Origin: Caloramator sp.
GTDB lineage: Bacteria > Bacillota > Clostridia > Clostridiales > Caloramatoraceae
Direction of reading: 5' to 3'
DNA length: 61,616 nucleotides
Assembly (NCBI GenBank): GCA_026416875.1
Contig: JAOAEI010000003.1
Location: 1 to 61,616, forward strand
In this document: piece after piece, positions 6,583-33,903 of the stretch
Position numbering within the stretch: the stretch's first letter is position 1
Layout: each line of letters starts with the position of its first letter
Position numbers and translations under genes: made by a program
The notes under the pieces: generated by a model
The model's database searches: none
The model's input: only the letters and a program-made list of their open reading frames with translations
What the model was told of the DNA's origin: nothing

Positions 6583-6600
6583 ATAATGTGACCTCTTATG

Positions 6601-6951
6601 GGGGCGTCTTGGCTTTCGACGGGGGTAGGAGGAATTCGGGAAGCGAGTCGTGGTGCTCGGAACCACGTTAAAAACCGGGACTTAAAAATAAACGCAAACG
6701 ATAATTTAGCTTTAGCTGCCTAATTAAAGGCGGCCGTCCTACCCAAGAGGCCCACGGCTTGGGATAGGGCGTGGACTAGTGGGGAACGGGCCTATCTAAG
6801 CTTTGCGATAGGTCGGCATCTATGAAGCTACTGAAGTCCGAATCCTGTCAGTGGGAGTCGGATGGAGGGAATGTCAAAACACTGACTGCGCTCGGAGATG
6901 CCTGGGTTTCACTGCCTTCGGACAGGGGTTCAACTCCCCTCGCCTCCACCA
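6601..6951 (+). ncRNA. ssrA: tmRNA, tag peptide (A)ANDNLALAA
   Basis: 5' GGGGCGTCTTGGCTTTCGAC and 3' GGACAGGGGTTCAACTCCCCTCGCCTCCACCA; tag ORF gca aac gat aat tta gct tta gct gcc taa at 6694-6723. Confidence 0.98.
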
Positions 6952-7015: not shown

Positions 7016-7231
7016 TGAAGTTGAAATAACTTAGAGACGATGGGAGTTGGATAAAAAATATATCACAAAAAGAAGGAAAGTAAGTGGATATGTAGAATAA
7101 AATAAATAAGACGTAATTTCATCTCTCCTTCGGATGTAAATGATAAAATAAAAATGTGCGAAAAGTGGAAAATAAAAATGTTCAAAATTGTCCATGCCTC
7201 TGGTATCCTTCTGATTGGGAGGGATACCAAG

Positions 7232-8434
7232 ATGGTAAATATAATAGGACAAATTAACATATTTAAAGCCATGAAGATAAAACCTAATTTTTCAGAATTA
7301 GCAAGAGAATTTGGAATAGATAGAAGAACTGTTAAAAAGTATTATGAAGGATATGAAGGAAAGCCAAAAACAAGAAAAAAGCAAAGTAAATTAGATAAAT
7401 ACTATGATGAAATAAAAGCAAAACTTCAAATAAAAGGGGTCACAGTAAAAGGTGTATATGAATACTTTGTTTCTAAAAAATATGATATGGGAACATATTC
7501 TAATTTCAATAAATATGTGAAAAGAAAGGGATTAAAACCTAATAAAAAAGTAAGTGGTCATCCAAGATTTGAAACTCCTGAAGGTAAACAAGCTCAAGTA
7601 GATTGGAAAGAGAATCTAAAATTAATTTCAAAACACGGAGAAGAATTCATTGTTAATGTCTTTAATTACAAACTTGGATATTCAAGATACTGTCATTTTG
7701 AATATAGAAAGACTAAAACACAACAAGATGTAATTGAGTGTTTAATATCAGCATTTAAAGCTACAGGAGGTGTTCCTCAAGAGATACTTTTTGATAACAT
7801 GAAAACAATAGTTGATATTACAAGTGAAGGGAGGAAGATAAATAATAAGCTAAAGGCATTTGCAGATGATTTTGGTTTTAAAATACGCTTATGCAAACCT
7901 AGACATTCCTATACAAAAGGGAAGGTAGAAGCAGCTAATAAATTTATTGAGTGGCTATTGCCATATAATAATGAATTTGAAAACGAAGAAGAATTGATAA
8001 AGATAATTAAGGAAATAAATAAAAAGGTAAATCAATCAATAAATCAATCAACAGGCATACAGCCCATGTTGCTATTCCAAAAAGAAAAGGAGTATTTATC
8101 CCCTTTACCTAATAATAGTATCATAGAAAATTATATGAACTTTGAACAAAAGGCAACTGTTCATAAAGATTCTATGATATATTACAAGGGAAATAAATAC
8201 TCAGTCCCAGCAAAATATATAAATAAAACTGTAACTCTTAAAGTAATAGAAAATGAGTTACATATATATTTTAACACAGAATTAATTTGCGTCCATAGTT
8301 TAAGTAATAAAAAATTAAATTATCTTGATTCACATTATAGGGAATTGATGAAAAATGCTATCAAGAATAAGGAAGATATAGAAGATATATGTTCAAATAA
8401 TCTTTATGAGTTAGATAGATTGTTACAGAGGTAG
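7232..8434 (+). CDS. istA: IS21 transposase IstA
   Basis: HTH (FSELAREFGIDRRTVKKYY) plus DDE-type integrase core (QVDWKENL, FDNMKTIV, KGKVEAANKFIEWLL). Start moved from 7154 to 7232 on RBS. Confidence 0.93.
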   Translation: MVNIIGQINIFKAMKIKPNFSELAREFGIDRRTVKKYYEGYEGKPKTRKKQSKLDKYYDEIKAKLQIKGVTVKGVYEYFVSKKYDMGTYSNFNKYVKRKGLKPNKKVSGHPRFETPEGKQAQVDWKENLKLISKHGEEFIVNVFNYKLGYSRYCHFEYRKTKTQQDVIECLISAFKATGGVPQEILFDNMKTIVDITSEGRKINNKLKAFADDFGFKIRLCKPRHSYTKGKVEAANKFIEWLLPYNNEFENEEELIKIIKEINKKVNQSINQSTGIQPMLLFQKEKEYLSPLPNNSIIENYMNFEQKATVHKDSMIYYKGNKYSVPAKYINKTVTLKVIENELHIYFNTELICVHSLSNKKLNYLDSHYRELMKNAIKNKEDIEDICSNNLYELDRLLQR

Positions 8435-15042: not shown

Positions 15043-16911
15043 TTGGCAGCTAATCGTTCCTTTACAGAATATATAGCAAATAGATTTGAAAATGAGTTAT
15101 TTGAAGCCATTCAGGATTATATTGAATATAACTATAATAATTTAGACTTGTGGTTATATAAAGTTAGAAAAATTGGTGGCATTGAATTATCAGATATCGA
15201 AGTGAAATTTGTAAATGTCAATGACTTGCCAGGCATGAAGATAGAATTTGATGTAGTAGTAGAAGCTGAATTTGAAGTAAGAGAGTCAGACTATCACTAT
15301 GATGAATCTGAAAATTGTGTGCAGTGGTTTGTATTAAAATGTTCTGGAGATTTAGACTGTAATTTAGATGACTTTAAAATTTACAGTTTAACTGAGTATA
15401 AAATCAAAAGTAAGCAGCCCAAACCTATGTCAGATTCACTTGTTCCATTTATTTATAGTGAACAATTAGAATCTGTTGCCACAGAATTTCTACGCAAAAA
15501 TTATCCAGAAGCATTAAAGACTCCGATGGCAGTTGACCCACAATTATTGGCAGAAAAAATAGGTCTTAAAATAGAAATTAGAGATATTACAAAGGACTTT
15601 ACAGTGTTTGGACAAATTTTTTTTCATGATTGCGAAGCAGAATTCTATGATAAAAACAGTGATAAAATGGTTCAAATTCATGTAAATGCTAAAACTATTT
15701 TTGTAGATCCGAAAGCATACTTTCTACGTAACCTTGGATCTGTTAATAATACTATTGTTCATGAGTGCGTTCATTGGGCTCTACACAGAAAGGCATTTGA
15801 ATTGGAAAGGTTATATAACAGTAGTGCAACAAAAATAAAATGTCAAGTAGTAGGTGGAATAAAAGATAGTAACAGGGATGCAACTGAATGGATGGAATGG
15901 CAGGCAAATGCACTTACCCCAAGGATACAAATGCCAATTTCAACATTTAAAGAAAAGGCATTTGAACTTATAAAGAAATATAAACAATTATTACAAACAG
16001 AAAAAATAATAGATGTAATGGAACCAGTTATTGATGAATTGGCTTTATTTTTTGGTGTTTCAAGATTAGCAGCTAAAATTCGAATGATTGATGTAGGATA
16101 TGAAGAAGCAATAGGAACTTTTACTTATATAGATGGTCATTATATCAGACCACATTGTTTTAAAAAAGGTTTTTTAAAAAGAAATCAGACCTTTTCAATT
16201 AGTGCAATAGACGCAGCTATACAAAGTTTTATTGATCCAGAATTATCTGCTTTGATAAAAGAAGGTAGTTACATATATGTAGATTCACATTTTGTTTTAA
16301 AACATCCTAAATATGTAACAAGAGATGAAAATGGATATGCTATATTAACTGATTATGCAAGAACTCACATGGAAGAGTGCTGTTTAGTTTTTGATCTATC
16401 AATTAAATCAGGATTTAAGGAAAGTTATCATAGTGAGTGTTTTCTAAATCGTGATAAAGGTTCAAATATAGATTTTGAATTAAAATTTAATAATGGATTT
16501 CAATATGCATCTCAAGAAAAAAAGATTAAGATACTTGCAGATGTTTTAGAGGAGGAAGCAAGAATTTTTAATGAACTACCCAATAGTTATACTAAATCAC
16601 TTGAAATGGTCATTGAATGGAGAGGTGTAACATATAAGGAATTAGAAGAAATGACATTGCTTAATGAGAAAACAATAAGGAGAATTGTTAATGGGGAAAC
16701 AAATGGTTCAATTGAATCATTAATTGTAATTTGTCTTGCATTAAATCTTCCACCAATGATAAGTAACCATATTATTAGTAAATCTCCACATTCACTAAAT
16801 TTAAACAATAGAGACCATCAGTGGTATAATTTTGTGTTAACATGCCAATACACAAAGTCAATGGATGAAATAAGACAATTTTTAAATCAGTGTGGTGCAA
16901 AGCCACTATAA
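15043..16911 (+). CDS. ImmA/IrrE-family metallopeptidase with C-terminal HTH
   Basis: VHECVHWALH (HExxH) ... EWMEWQANALTPRIQMP; C-terminal ITYKELEEMTLLNEKTIRRIVNGE-like HTH; start TTG with RBS GGAG. Confidence 0.85.
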   Translation: MAANRSFTEYIANRFENELFEAIQDYIEYNYNNLDLWLYKVRKIGGIELSDIEVKFVNVNDLPGMKIEFDVVVEAEFEVRESDYHYDESENCVQWFVLKCSGDLDCNLDDFKIYSLTEYKIKSKQPKPMSDSLVPFIYSEQLESVATEFLRKNYPEALKTPMAVDPQLLAEKIGLKIEIRDITKDFTVFGQIFFHDCEAEFYDKNSDKMVQIHVNAKTIFVDPKAYFLRNLGSVNNTIVHECVHWALHRKAFELERLYNSSATKIKCQVVGGIKDSNRDATEWMEWQANALTPRIQMPISTFKEKAFELIKKYKQLLQTEKIIDVMEPVIDELALFFGVSRLAAKIRMIDVGYEEAIGTFTYIDGHYIRPHCFKKGFLKRNQTFSISAIDAAIQSFIDPELSALIKEGSYIYVDSHFVLKHPKYVTRDENGYAILTDYARTHMEECCLVFDLSIKSGFKESYHSECFLNRDKGSNIDFELKFNNGFQYASQEKKIKILADVLEEEARIFNELPNSYTKSLEMVIEWRGVTYKELEEMTLLNEKTIRRIVNGETNGSIESLIVICLALNLPPMISNHIISKSPHSLNLNNRDHQWYNFVLTCQYTKSMDEIRQFLNQCGAKPL

Positions 16912-26530: not shown

Positions 26531-26953
26531 ATGAATGCTAAAGAATTTTTAAGGCAGGCTATATGGCTTGATAAACTAATAAACAGCAAATTAGAACAGC
26601 TTGAAAAATTAGAGGCTTTGGCACAAAAGACGACAGTTGAATTATCAAAAGAAAAGGTGTCAGGGGGAAACGGTTCAACAAGTTCTATGGAGAACGTTGT
26701 GGTAAAGATAGTGGAATTAAAAAAAGAAATTAATAATGACATAGATAGATTAATTGATATAAAAAGAGAAATCAGTCAGATTATTTCAAACATAGATGAC
26801 CCAAGCCATCAACTGATTCTTGAAATGAGGTATGTAAACAACAGGGATTGGGAAGAGATAGCAGAGGAGATAGGATACGATATTAGATGGACATTAAAAT
26901 TACATGGTAGAGCATTAAAGGAAGTTGATGAAATATTAAAAACAGGACACTAA
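26531..26953 (+). CDS. DUF1492/ArpU-like phage transcriptional regulator
   Basis: RLIDIKREISQIISNIDDPSHQLILEMRYVNNRDWEEIAEEIGYDIRWTLKLHGRAL, sigma-70 region-4-like HTH. Confidence 0.75.
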   Translation: MNAKEFLRQAIWLDKLINSKLEQLEKLEALAQKTTVELSKEKVSGGNGSTSSMENVVVKIVELKKEINNDIDRLIDIKREISQIISNIDDPSHQLILEMRYVNNRDWEEIAEEIGYDIRWTLKLHGRALKEVDEILKTGH

Positions 26954-27012
26954 AATTCGCAAAAATTCACTAAAGTTCATTGAAAGACACTATTGATTTA
27001 TGATATTATTAG
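26948..27012 (+). promoter_or_regulatory. Candidate activator-dependent promoter 1: five CACT-type 10-bp repeats then TTATGATATTATT
   Basis: CACTAAAATT/CGCAAAAATT/CACTAAAGTT/CATTGAAAGA/CACTATTGAT in exact 10-bp register. Confidence 0.6.
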
Positions 27013-27060
27013 AATGTGAAGATTTGTATGAAGAGTATGGCGAGGGTAAATATTATTATT

Positions 27061-27096
27061 AAAGCTCTGAAGTTATAACACTTTAGGGCTTTTTTA
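27061..27096 (+). terminator. Terminator downstream of promoter 1
   Basis: AAAGCTCTGAAGTtataacACTTTAGGGCTTTTTT (with G.U pairs). Confidence 0.7.
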
Positions 27097-27120
27097 ATTC
27101 AAAATTCATTTTAAAGAGGG

Positions 27121-27168
27121 CACTAAAAGACACTAGAAGCCACTCTTGACTTATGATATAGTTAAAAT
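27121..27168 (+). promoter_or_regulatory. Candidate activator-dependent promoter 2: three CACT-type 10-bp repeats then TTATGATATAGTTAAAAT
   Basis: CACTAAAAGA/CACTAGAAGC/CACTCTTGAC at 27121, 27131, 27141. Confidence 0.6.
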
Positions 27169-27171
27169 AGA

Positions 27172-27206
27172 GAAGCTATTGCAGAAAAATCTGCGATGGC
27201 TTTTTT
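27172..27206 (+). terminator. Terminator/attenuator downstream of promoter 2
   Basis: GAAGCTATTGCAGAaaaaTCTGCGATGGCTTTTTT. Confidence 0.7.
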
Positions 27207-29332: not shown

Positions 29333-29551
29333 ATGGAAGAATTTTATGTGATAACAATGAAAACGAAAACAGGAAAGGATATTTTTTTAAGCCTTTGGGA
29401 CGGAAACCCAAAATGGACATTTGATTTTAATAAAGGCTGCTACTGGGACTCAGAAGAGATGGCAGAAGAATTTGCAAAGAAATGGTTTAAAACCTTTAAA
29501 GGCTGGAATATAAAAGAAATAAAAGTAAATATACACAACTTAGGGCTTTAA
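29333..29551 (+). CDS. Small phage protein
   Basis: MEEFYVITMKTKTGKDIFLSLWDGNPKW; start at 29333 after RBS (track start 29270 lies in leader). Confidence 0.6.
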   Translation: MEEFYVITMKTKTGKDIFLSLWDGNPKWTFDFNKGCYWDSEEMAEEFAKKWFKTFKGWNIKEIKVNIHNLGL

Positions 29552-29563
29552 GCCCTTTTTCTT
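29541..29563 (+). terminator. Terminator AGGGCTTTAAGCCCTTTTT between the two leader-preceded genes
   Basis: Dyad plus T-run. Confidence 0.7.
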
Positions 29564-30587: not shown

Positions 30588-30616
30588 AAGAGTCTACATA
30601 TGTAGGCTCTTTTATT
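30588..30616 (+). terminator. Terminator immediately upstream of terS
   Basis: AAGAGTCTACATATGTAGGCTCTTTTATTTT. Confidence 0.6.
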
Positions 30617-30629
30617 TTAGAACAAGGAG

Positions 30630-31166: not shown

Positions 31167-31367
31167 GTGTGGGGGGGTTCAATGAGGCATATTGAAAAAG
31201 TTTTAGATTATGAAAGGCAAAAACTAGATAGAATGGTTAAGTATTTAGATTTTGAAGTTAATAAAGAAAAGATTTTAAAGCAAAGTCAGAAAGTAGATGT
31301 GCTTTTGAATAGATATATGAAATATATTGAAAATAAAAATAACAGAAAGAGGGGCAGCAATGTTTGA
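31167..31367 (+). CDS. Small phage protein
   Basis: Short ORF between terS and terL. Confidence 0.4.
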   Translation: MWGGSMRHIEKVLDYERQKLDRMVKYLDFEVNKEKILKQSQKVDVLLNRYMKYIENKNNRKRGSNV

Positions 31368-33903
31368 CGATAAAAAAGCCAAACATGCGGTAGAGTTTAT
31401 AAGGAACCTCAAGCATACCAAAGGAGTATGGCGTGGGGTTCCTTTTGATTTACTTCCTTGGCAGGAAAAAATAATTAAAGATATATTCGGAACAGTTAAG
31501 GAAGACGGGTATAGGCAGTATAATACAGCATATATTGAAATACCAAAGAAAAATGGAAAACAATTAGCTTTAGATACACCTATTCCAACACCTACAGGGT
31601 TTACAACAATGGGCGAGATAAAAGTTGGAGACCAAGTAATAGATGAAAAAGGAATGCCGTGTAATGTAGTTGCAATAAGTGAAATTGATGATACTGAACA
31701 GGCATATAAAATAACTTTTAGAGATGGAACAAGTATAGTAGCAGGAGAAAGACATCTTTGGAGGGTGCAAGTTACTAATAATGGAAGACGCGAAAAACTC
31801 CTAACAACAGGTGAAATGTATGAAAAAATAAAAAAGGCTTCCCAAAAAGATAAAAGAGCCATATTTCGCATCCCAATAGCGGATGCTTTTATTTTGCCTG
31901 AAATTAATCTGCCTATTGACCCTTATTTATTTGGTTATTGGATAGGAAACGGTAACGCAATAAAGCCAGAAATTACGGTTAGAAGAGATGATGTTGAAAA
32001 GGTTATTAAGAACATACCATATAAACTTCATAATAGATATGAGCAAGAAGGTAATAGTGACATTTTAGTATATAAAGAATTAAAAGCTATATTGGTTAAT
32101 AATTTTAGAGAGAAAAGAATACCAAACGAGTATTTAAGAGCATCAATTCGGCAACGATTAAGTCTTTTAAAAGGACTTATTGATTCAGATGGTTGTATAA
32201 GTAAAGAGAAGGGACAGAGCATATATGTCACTATTTTACCAAAGCTAGCAGAAGATGTTCAAAATCTTTTATGGTCACTTGGAATAAAAAATACACTAAA
32301 AACAACACCATCAACAAGAAAAGGGATCCCAACAGGAGAAACATGTTATATTATAAGATTCACAGCTTTCAAAGATTTAGAAGTTTCAGCTTTAGATAGG
32401 AAAATAGAAAGAGCAAAGGAAAGGAATATAAGAAGCAGGTCCCATTTTCACTATATTAGTTCTATTGAAAAAACAGATAAATGTAAAATGAGATGTATTC
32501 AGGTAGACAGCCCATCAAGGTTATATTTAGCTGGAAAATCTATGGTTCCTACACATAATAGTGAACTTGCCGCAGCAGTAGCTTTATATCTTACCTGTGC
32601 AGATAATGAATGGGGAGCAGAGGTTTATGGATGTGCGTCTGATAGACAACAGGCATCAATTGTTTTTGATGTGGCAGTTGAAATGGTAAACCAGTGTCCT
32701 GCATTGAAAAAGAGAATGAAACTTATTCCCTCAGTTAAAAGAATGGTTTACCTGCCAACAAGTAGCTTTTATCAAGTTCTGTCAGCGGAAGCTTATACAA
32801 AACATGGGCTTAATGTTCATGGAGTTATTTTTGATGAGCTACATTCCCAACCGACAAGAGAACTTTATGATGTAATGACTAAAGGTAGCGGAGATGCAAG
32901 AAAGCAACCGTTATATTTTTTAATCACAACTGCAGGAACAGATAGAAATTCTATATGTTATGAAGTTCACCAAAAGGCAGTGGATATAATTCAAGGGAGA
33001 AAGATTGACCCTACCTTTTATCCAGTAATTTATGGACTTGGTGATGATGAGGACTGGACTTTGGAAGAAAACTGGTATAAAGTTAATCCTTCTTTAGGAT
33101 ATACAATAGATATAGAAAAGGTAAGAGCTGCGTTTAACAATGCAAAAGAAAACCCTGCAGAAGAAAATTTATTCAGGCAGCTTAGATTAAACCAATGGGT
33201 TAAGCAGTCAGTTAGGTGGATGCCGATGGATAAGTGGGATAAATGTGCTTTTGATGTTGAGCCTGAAAAATTAAGAGGAAAAATATGTTATGGAGGACTT
33301 GACCTTTCAAGTACAACCGATATTACGGCTTTTGTTTTGGTGTTTCCACCAACAGATGCAGATGATAAATATTATGTTCTTCCTTATTTTTGGATACCAG
33401 AAGAAAATTTAAAACTTAGAGTAAAAAGAGACCATGTTCCTTATGATGTGTGGGAAAAACAAGGATTTATTAAGACTACTGAAGGAAATGTAATTCACTA
33501 TGGATTTATAGAAAGTTTTATAGAAGAACTTGGGACCAAGTATAACATAAAAGAAATAGCCTTTGATAGGTGGGGAGCGGTTCAAATGGTTCAAAATCTT
33601 GAAGGATTAGGGTTTACAGTTGTTCCATTTGGACAGGGTTATAAAGATATGTCGCCACCAACAAAGGAATTAATGAAGTTAACACTTGAAGAAAAAATAG
33701 CCCATGGAAGCAACCCAGTGTTAAGGTGGATGATGGATAATATTTATATAAAGACTGACCCAGCAGGGAATATAAAGCCCGATAAGGAAAAATCAACTGA
33801 AAAGATTGATGGTGCTGTGGCTTTAATTATGGCACTTGATAGAGCAATAAGGAATCAAAATTTGGGTTCTGTTTATGATGATAGAGGGATTTTGGTGTTG
33901 TAA
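31360..33903 (+). CDS. Phage terminase large subunit interrupted in frame by an intein
   Basis: HAVEFIRNLKHTKGVWRGVPFDLLPWQEKIIKDIFG...IPKKNGK|intein|SELAAAVALYLTCADNEWGAEVYGCASDR; VIFDELHSQ Walker B. Confidence 0.94.
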   Translation: MFDDKKAKHAVEFIRNLKHTKGVWRGVPFDLLPWQEKIIKDIFGTVKEDGYRQYNTAYIEIPKKNGKQLALDTPIPTPTGFTTMGEIKVGDQVIDEKGMPCNVVAISEIDDTEQAYKITFRDGTSIVAGERHLWRVQVTNNGRREKLLTTGEMYEKIKKASQKDKRAIFRIPIADAFILPEINLPIDPYLFGYWIGNGNAIKPEITVRRDDVEKVIKNIPYKLHNRYEQEGNSDILVYKELKAILVNNFREKRIPNEYLRASIRQRLSLLKGLIDSDGCISKEKGQSIYVTILPKLAEDVQNLLWSLGIKNTLKTTPSTRKGIPTGETCYIIRFTAFKDLEVSALDRKIERAKERNIRSRSHFHYISSIEKTDKCKMRCIQVDSPSRLYLAGKSMVPTHNSELAAAVALYLTCADNEWGAEVYGCASDRQQASIVFDVAVEMVNQCPALKKRMKLIPSVKRMVYLPTSSFYQVLSAEAYTKHGLNVHGVIFDELHSQPTRELYDVMTKGSGDARKQPLYFLITTAGTDRNSICYEVHQKAVDIIQGRKIDPTFYPVIYGLGDDEDWTLEENWYKVNPSLGYTIDIEKVRAAFNNAKENPAEENLFRQLRLNQWVKQSVRWMPMDKWDKCAFDVEPEKLRGKICYGGLDLSSTTDITAFVLVFPPTDADDKYYVLPYFWIPEENLKLRVKRDHVPYDVWEKQGFIKTTEGNVIHYGFIESFIEELGTKYNIKEIAFDRWGAVQMVQNLEGLGFTVVPFGQGYKDMSPPTKELMKLTLEEKIAHGSNPVLRWMMDNIYIKTDPAGNIKPDKEKSTEKIDGAVALIMALDRAIRNQNLGSVYDDRGILVL
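31561..32559 (+). other. Intein (333 aa) in TerL with LAGLIDADG-type endonuclease domain; class 3 (WCT) features
   Basis: QLALDTPIPTPTGFTTMGEIKVGDQVID (block A); GERHLWRV (block B, Trp); LFGYWIGNG / LLKGLIDSDG; MRCIQVDSPSRLYLAGKSMVPTHN|S (F/G with Cys and Thr). Confidence 0.92.

What the first reader, a model, noticed from the sequence alone, without database searches (positions are those of the whole stretch)
26948..27206. Duplicated promoter-terminator module built from 10-bp-phased CACT repeats right after the DUF1492/ArpU-like regulator
Seen: copy 1 has five units in exact 10-bp register (26948, 26958, 26968, 26978, 26988), then TTATGATATTATT, then a terminator at 27061-27096. Copy 2 has three units (27121, 27131, 27141), then TTATGATATAG, then a second terminator at 27172-27206. 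The two hairpins resemble each other (AAGCT...GGCTTTTTT), suggesting tandem duplication. Repeats on one helical face just upstream of a -10 and lacking a good -35 suggest activator sites, plausibly for the adjacent sigma-region-4-like protein. A promoter followed at once by a terminator resembles the lambda pR'-6S-tR' layout, so transcripts from copy 1 would be ~60-95 nt RNAs unless antiterminated.
Basis: partly seen in the sequence, partly recalled or inferred. Interest (0 to 1): 0.76.

Follow-up and report, generated by a model that had tools for sequence, protein, structure and literature searches.

The report
Phage late-gene switch: repeats, promoter, terminator
This is the on-switch for the late (virion) genes of a prophage: an array of 10-bp sites, probably bound by the regulator encoded next door, sits on a promoter that is blocked at once by a transcription terminator, and many Firmicutes phages share this layout, some with an undescribed structured RNA in between, which suggests they control late genes by helping RNA polymerase ignore terminators.

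Summary
The region is the late-operon control region of a Firmicutes prophage, and its layout is widely conserved.

The DUF1492/phrog_36 regulator (coiled coil plus sigma-region-4 fold) is followed by units in exact 10-bp register. The last three sit at fixed positions -33/-23/-13 before an extended -10 (TGnTATAAT). Across 79 related promoters, lag 10 stands out (z=17); lags 9 and 11 do not. Unit sequence tracks regulator residues 119/120 of the recognition helix, so this protein probably binds the repeats.

An intrinsic terminator follows the promoter in 68/98 loci (9% after other genes), usually starting about 20 nt after the inferred start and ending about 30 nt before the first late gene. 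The window's late operon has further sense terminators; its early region has none. Late transcription must therefore read through terminators, as with lambda Q or conAn. Antitermination is inferred, not shown.

In the clade closest to the window, a roughly 150-nt structured RNA absent from Rfam, supported by compensatory changes, fills the promoter-terminator gap. Window copy 1 retains only a remnant.

Known kind: late transcription regulators (Ltr). New: the conserved promoter-terminator layout and the RNA.

The parts
26531..26953 (+). DUF1492 / phrog_36 late regulator (140 aa): N-terminal coiled coil, C-terminal sigma-region-4-like HTH; recognition residues R119 and W120
   Evidence: PF07374 E=8.5e-9 above cut-off; phrog_36 transcriptional regulator E=1e-27; AF2 model pLDDT 86.6, sigma region 4 domains TMt 0.7-0.8 over about 60 residues
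26948..26997 (+). Operator array 1: five 10-bp units (CACTAAAATT CGCAAAAATT CACTAAAGTT CATTGAAAGA CACTATTGAT)
   Evidence: conserved phasing and position in relatives
26980..26985 (+). -35-like TTGAAA embedded in unit 4 (18-bp spacer)
   Evidence: same middle-unit form CAT(T/A)GAA in relatives
27001..27009 (+). Extended -10 of promoter 1 (TGATATTAT); inferred start about 27016-27017
   Evidence: consensus TGnTATAAT; start position inferred, not measured
27007..27106 (+). Decayed remnant of the conserved leader RNA of related phages
   Evidence: CM R1 18.1 bits, E=0.0035 over 1.2 kb at the expected place; closest relatives L003/L099 52 bits
27061..27096 (+). Intrinsic terminator 1
27121..27150 (+). 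Operator array 2: three 10-bp units
27154..27162 (+). Extended -10 of promoter 2 (TGATATAGT); inferred start about 27169-27170
   Evidence: same 13-bp CACT-to-TG spacing
27169..27206 (+). Intrinsic terminator 2, beginning at about +1 of promoter 2
29542..29563 (+). Further sense terminator inside the late operon (after the MTase and small ORF)
30588..30618 (+). Further sense terminator directly upstream of terS (30630)
   Evidence: TerS phrog_83 E=6.7e-60

Best explanation
The region is the master switch of a prophage's late operon. [quoted passage not shown] The row covers the -35 region up to just short of an extended -10 sigma-A promoter. RNA polymerase starting there meets an intrinsic terminator within about 50-80 nt and meets several more before and among the terminase and capsid genes. 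The most likely job of the regulator is to load onto polymerase at the promoter and make it read through these terminators, probably while also raising initiation: a sigma-4-like, Q-like late antiterminator of Firmicutes phages. In the clade closest to the window a structured leader RNA lies between promoter and terminator and may be an RNA partner; the window keeps only a remnant of it. Shown here: anatomy, conservation, site-regulator co-variation, terminator enrichment, RNA structure. Inferred: binding, start sites, antitermination.
For: Lag-10 self-similarity upstream of the -10 in 79 promoters: z=17; lag 20 z=11-15; lags 9 and 11 not raised. Units at fixed -13/-23/-33 from TGnTATAAT. R119 goes with C at the first unit base in 23/28, without R in 2/20; residues 119/120 beat every other adjacent HTH pair when proteins of similar overall identity are compared. 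Terminator after the regulator in 68/98 loci, 9% after other ORFs, 6% at random places (Fisher 8e-34). Stem starts a median 21 nt after the inferred start; first SD and start codon a median 30 nt after the stem, so there is little room for another promoter. The late region does not avoid sense terminators (67 sense, 62 antisense) while the early region does (16, 42), p=0.002; in the window 0 sense terminators in 9 kb of early region, 6 between regulator and portal gene, one of them weak and inside the TerL intein. Same layout in phi13, whose repeats and Ltr are experimentally required (PMC13123087). Sigma-R4-like 21Q binds direct repeats in the late promoter and blocks termination (PMC6606751).
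Against: No conserved -10-like pause element in the initial transcribed region, which Q and AlpA need (PMC6606751, PMC9371919). The DUF1492 model does not place Q proteins among its 50 best structure matches. Published work calls functionally comparable regulators activators (PMC13123087). Terminator strength and start sites are predictions only, and some terminators may be leaky. The structured RNA is absent from most of the family, so it cannot be essential to the general mechanism.
Confidence: 0.55

Rival explanations
1. Classical late activator. The regulator only recruits sigma-A RNA polymerase to a weak promoter, as proposed for Ltr and Alt. The terminators are leaky insulators that stop early-operon read-through, and strong induced transcription simply overruns them.
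For: Ltr/Alt precedent: repeats upstream of the start, deletion kills activity (PMC13123087). Repeats overlap the regulator stop codon, so an insulator could only be placed downstream of the promoter.
Against: The terminator would also block the late transcript. Several further sense terminators follow. Published phi13 reporter data (YFP behind +50) cannot tell activation from read-through, because +50 includes the hairpin by our coordinates.
Confidence: 0.33
2. The promoter-terminator unit exists to make a short stable RNA (a 6S-like or sponge RNA) during late infection, and late genes are driven from elsewhere.
For: RNA of relatives is closed by a 5'-3' helix that pairs the start with the U-tract, as in stable RNAs.
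Against: Most family members have no structured RNA, only about 50 nt from start to hairpin end. Little space for another promoter before the first late gene.
Confidence: 0.08
3. Translation-coupled attenuation: a leader ORF covering the terminator controls read-through.
For: An ATG lies in window terminator 2 (27196).
Against: Only 5 of 59 loci have an ORF with a Shine-Dalgarno sequence that spans the terminator.
Confidence: 0.03

Closest known systems
Ltr / ArpU / RinA / Alt late transcription regulators of Gram-positive phages (phi13 Ltr, TP901-1 Alt)
   Same: Small protein encoded just upstream of its late promoter; [quoted passage not shown] controls packaging and structural genes; a terminator also follows the promoter in phi13 (16090-16115) and lies before terS in TP901-1
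   Different: Different sequence family (RinA model below cut-off, no ArpU hit). Units every 10 bp reaching into the -35/-10 spacer, against 9/18-bp units ending at -42 in phi13 and repeats at -76 to -32 in TP901-1 (PMC13123087)
Lambdoid Q antiterminators (21Q, lambda Q)
   Same: Sigma-R4-like HTH (21Q), direct-repeat binding element in the late promoter, terminator shortly after the start, long late operon
   Different: No conserved -10-like pause element; three to five units on one face, against two 6-bp subsites contacted from different faces in 21Q (PMC6606751); Q proteins not among the 50 best structure matches
AlpA (Pseudomonas) and GafZ (Caulobacter GTA)
   Same: Protein bound inside the promoter lets RNA polymerase pass a terminator (PMC7969949, PMC11150451); GafZ is also predicted to have a sigma-like HTH
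   Different: Binding element for one AlpA molecule, palindrome for GafZ, not a phased array; homology not tested here
conAn of Gram-positive conjugative plasmids; HK022 put; EAR
   Same: RNA element at the start of a long operon with internal terminators; conAn pairs a protein with an RNA (PMC8955417)
   Different: No Rfam match for the RNA; the protein here probably sits on the promoter DNA; RNA present only in one clade

Membership tests
DUF1492 (PF07374) / phrog_36 | Profile match above curated cut-off | tested here: met
   35.9 bits against 21.5; phrog_36 E=1e-27
ArpU/RinA-type Ltr | Match to TIGR01637 or TIGR01636 above cut-off | tested here: not met
   RinA 17.0 bits against 31.9; no ArpU hit
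[quoted passage not shown]
   Replication genes upstream, HNH, MTase, TerS, TerL, portal and capsid downstream
ArpU/RinA-type Ltr | Direct repeats upstream of the promoter as binding sites | tested here: inconclusive
   Repeats present and co-varying with the HTH; binding not testable
Q-type antiterminator | Sigma-R4-like HTH | tested here: met
   Foldseek sigma-4 domains TMt 0.7-0.8
Q-type antiterminator | Terminator shortly downstream of the late promoter | tested here: met
Q-type antiterminator | -10-like sigma-pause element in the initial transcribed region | tested here: not met
   No conserved TANNNT after the inferred start
Q-type antiterminator | Structural or sequence homology to Q | tested here: not met
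   No Q among the 50 best Foldseek hits or in the PDB sequence search
Q-type antiterminator | Terminator read-through depends on the protein | not testable with these tools
   needs in vitro or reporter assay
Known RNA families (Rfam 15) | Match at gathering score | tested here: not met
   0 matches in 12 loci; window only chance-level hits

The most novel reading that the evidence does not exclude
DUF1492 regulators and the new leader RNA form a bipartite processive antitermination system for late genes of Firmicutes phages. More broadly, Gram-positive 'late activators' (Ltr, Alt, RinA) act wholly or partly as antiterminators, which the published phi13 reporter design could not have distinguished from activation.
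Probability: 0.35. Interest if true: 0.85.

Novelty: new variant of a known kind. Interest (0 to 1): 0.68.

Why it matters
How Gram-positive phages switch on their late genes is usually described as simple activation. A conserved promoter-terminator layout, with more terminators inside the late operon, predicts regulated read-through instead, and predicts it for experimentally tractable phages such as phi13 and TP901-1. A residue-base association (R119 with C, Q119 with G/A; W/Y120 with CACT, T120 with CAGT) would make the operators of uncharacterised regulators of this family predictable. The leader RNA is a new structured RNA candidate with compensatory base changes.

Tried and rejected
Rfam at gathering score and at loose E-value: nothing real.

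A tRNA-like identity for the RNA: considered from the conserved GATTCGATTC stretch; the flanking bases do not form a T-arm.

DNA cruciform instead of RNA: rejected, because the pairs tolerate G-U far more than A-C (116 against 24 cells), which also fixes the strand as that of the late genes.

Leader-peptide attenuation: 5/59 loci.

Universal pairing of the 5' end with the U-tract in RNA-less relatives: noticed by eye, but it overlaps bases before the inferred start, so not claimed.

Lambda-style pause element: none conserved.

RinA/ArpU genome hits as a clean comparison: only 9/24 and 5/8 with a terminator, and many of these hits may not be phage late regulators.

Quiles-Puchalt 2013 not held in the library.

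Full report
OBSERVATION. The sequence is as described, with small corrections. The regulator gene (26531-26953) ends inside the first unit. Copy 1: CACTAAAATT CGCAAAAATT CACTAAAGTT CATTGAAAGA CACTATTGAT, then TTATGATATTATTAGAAT. Copy 2: CACTAAAAGA CACTAGAAGC CACTCTTGAC, then TTATGATATAGTTAAAAT. The promoter parts are a 48-nt direct repeat at 75% identity. Hairpins at 27061-27092 and 27169-27206 end in T runs. No other copy exists in the 61.6-kb window.

CONTEXT. Upstream lie replication genes (helicase, polymerase-like, D5-like primase); downstream HNH, ParB/MTase, TerS, TerL, portal, protease, capsid and tape measure. The 140-aa protein is DUF1492/phrog_36. Its model (pLDDT 86.6) has two long N-terminal helices and a C-terminal sigma-region-4 domain.

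RELATIVES. About 180 regulator genes were collected from viral contigs, genomes and phage records, reduced to 101. Most show the order regulator, phased units, extended -10, terminator, first late gene. Self-similarity upstream of the -10 peaks at lag 10 (0.416 against 0.28 shuffled, z=17) and lag 20; lags 9 and 11 are not raised. The last three units start at -33, -23 and -13 from the TG. The middle unit is usually CAT(T/A)GAA, so it doubles as a -35 (TTGAAA, 18-bp spacer). Unit sequence differs by phage: CACT, CAGT, GACT, GAGT, TTGATA and others.

SITE-REGULATOR CO-VARIATION. In 48 promoters with clear phasing, the strongest association among all protein columns and unit positions was residue 119 with the first CANT base: R with C in 23/28, not-R with C in 2/20. 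For pairs of proteins with similar N-terminal identity (0.35-0.60), sharing residues 119/120 raised unit identity by 0.32; the next best neighbouring pair in the HTH gave 0.16. Related sequences are not independent, so this is support, not proof, that the regulator reads the units. The two residues begin the last helix, the recognition helix of region 4.

TERMINATORS. With one finder for all places, 68/98 loci have a terminator within 280 nt after the regulator, against 41/438 after other ORFs and 6% at random. Visual reading shows the finder misses several (for example L024, L026, L034). The stem starts a median 21 nt after the inferred start and the first late Shine-Dalgarno plus start codon comes a median 30 nt after it, so there is little room for a second promoter. 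In the next 2.1 kb sense terminators are as common as antisense ones (67, 62); upstream of the regulator they are avoided (16, 42; p=0.002). In the window the 9-kb early stretch has none; the late stretch has two in the leader, then 29541 and 30587 (just before terS), 31867 (weak, inside the TerL intein) and 35115 (before the portal gene). Internal terminators in an operon are taken as a sign of processive antitermination in Gram-positive conjugation operons (PMC8955417).

STRUCTURED RNA. In the regulator clade closest to the window (21 of 30 members; 5 parsimony changes against 20 shuffled) about 150 nt of conserved sequence lie between promoter and terminator. Five helices plus the terminator hairpin are supported: 93.8% of cells paired against 40-55% when slid, 15 pairs with changes on both sides against 7.4 shuffled (0/500). 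G-U outnumbers A-C 116 to 24, so it works as RNA from the late strand. Single sequences fold with z below -4. Rfam has no match. Of 34 viral contigs found by a 19-nt core pattern that does not mention the regulator, 33 have the regulator just upstream; the 34th is cut there. The window keeps a weak remnant exactly in place (18.1 bits, 27007-27106); its nearest relatives L003/L099 score 52. One copy with promoter but no regulator lies in a host chromosome (L183/L338).

COMPARISON WITH KNOWN SYSTEMS. phi13 Ltr and TP901-1 Alt use direct repeats before the late promoter, and in phi13 Ltr and the repeats are needed for late expression (PMC13123087). In phi13 the hairpin 16090-16115 starts about 25 nt after the start site (about 16066, from the -42 repeat border given in the paper), so the published reporter (+50) carries it. 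All 8 non-redundant phi13-type loci have such a terminator. 21Q is sigma-R4-like and binds direct repeats in its promoter (PMC6606751); AlpA and GafZ work similarly (PMC7969949, PMC11150451). The present family lacks the -10-like pause element and is not structurally recognised as Q, so it is not filed as Q; it may work like Q.

VERDICT. Late control region with regulator-bound phased repeats: very likely. Regulated read-through of the terminators: somewhat more likely than not. RNA partner: real as a structure in relatives, decayed in the window, role unknown. A tandem promoter-terminator module also occurs in L119/L146 and L003 carries two regulator-promoter-terminator cassettes, so duplication of the module recurs and is not special to this window.

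LIMITS. No transcript data; start sites inferred from the -10; terminators predicted; own assembly 78% complete; RNA model E-values rough; the RNA alignment was seeded by a shared core motif; related sequences are not independent in the co-variation counts.

Noticed in passing
window 31327-33903: The large terminase ORF (858 aa) appears to contain an intein (ALDTPIPTPTG... to ...VPTHNS between the two terminase halves).
   Followed up: no
window 6600-6951: tmRNA gene (tag ANDNLALAA) upstream of the phage region; a common prophage attachment site. A transposase-like gene (phrog_1157) follows at 7154-8434.
   Followed up: no
L119 2923-3130 and L146 2923-3130: A second GAGAGT-type promoter-terminator module follows the first about 118 nt downstream: the tandem arrangement recurs outside the window's clade.
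   Followed up: partly
L003 3001-4110: Two tandem DUF1492 paralogues, each followed by its own CACT array, promoter and terminator.
   Followed up: partly
L183 / L338 about 2299-2439: Orphan copy of repeats, promoter and structured RNA without a regulator, in a host chromosomal context.
   Followed up: partly
L220 4130-4430 (TP901-1): tRNA-like sequences lie between the late promoter and the terminator upstream of terS.
   Followed up: no
L219 15950-16122 (phi13): Experimentally studied promoter P23 is followed by an intrinsic terminator that the published +50 reporter seems to include.
   Followed up: yes
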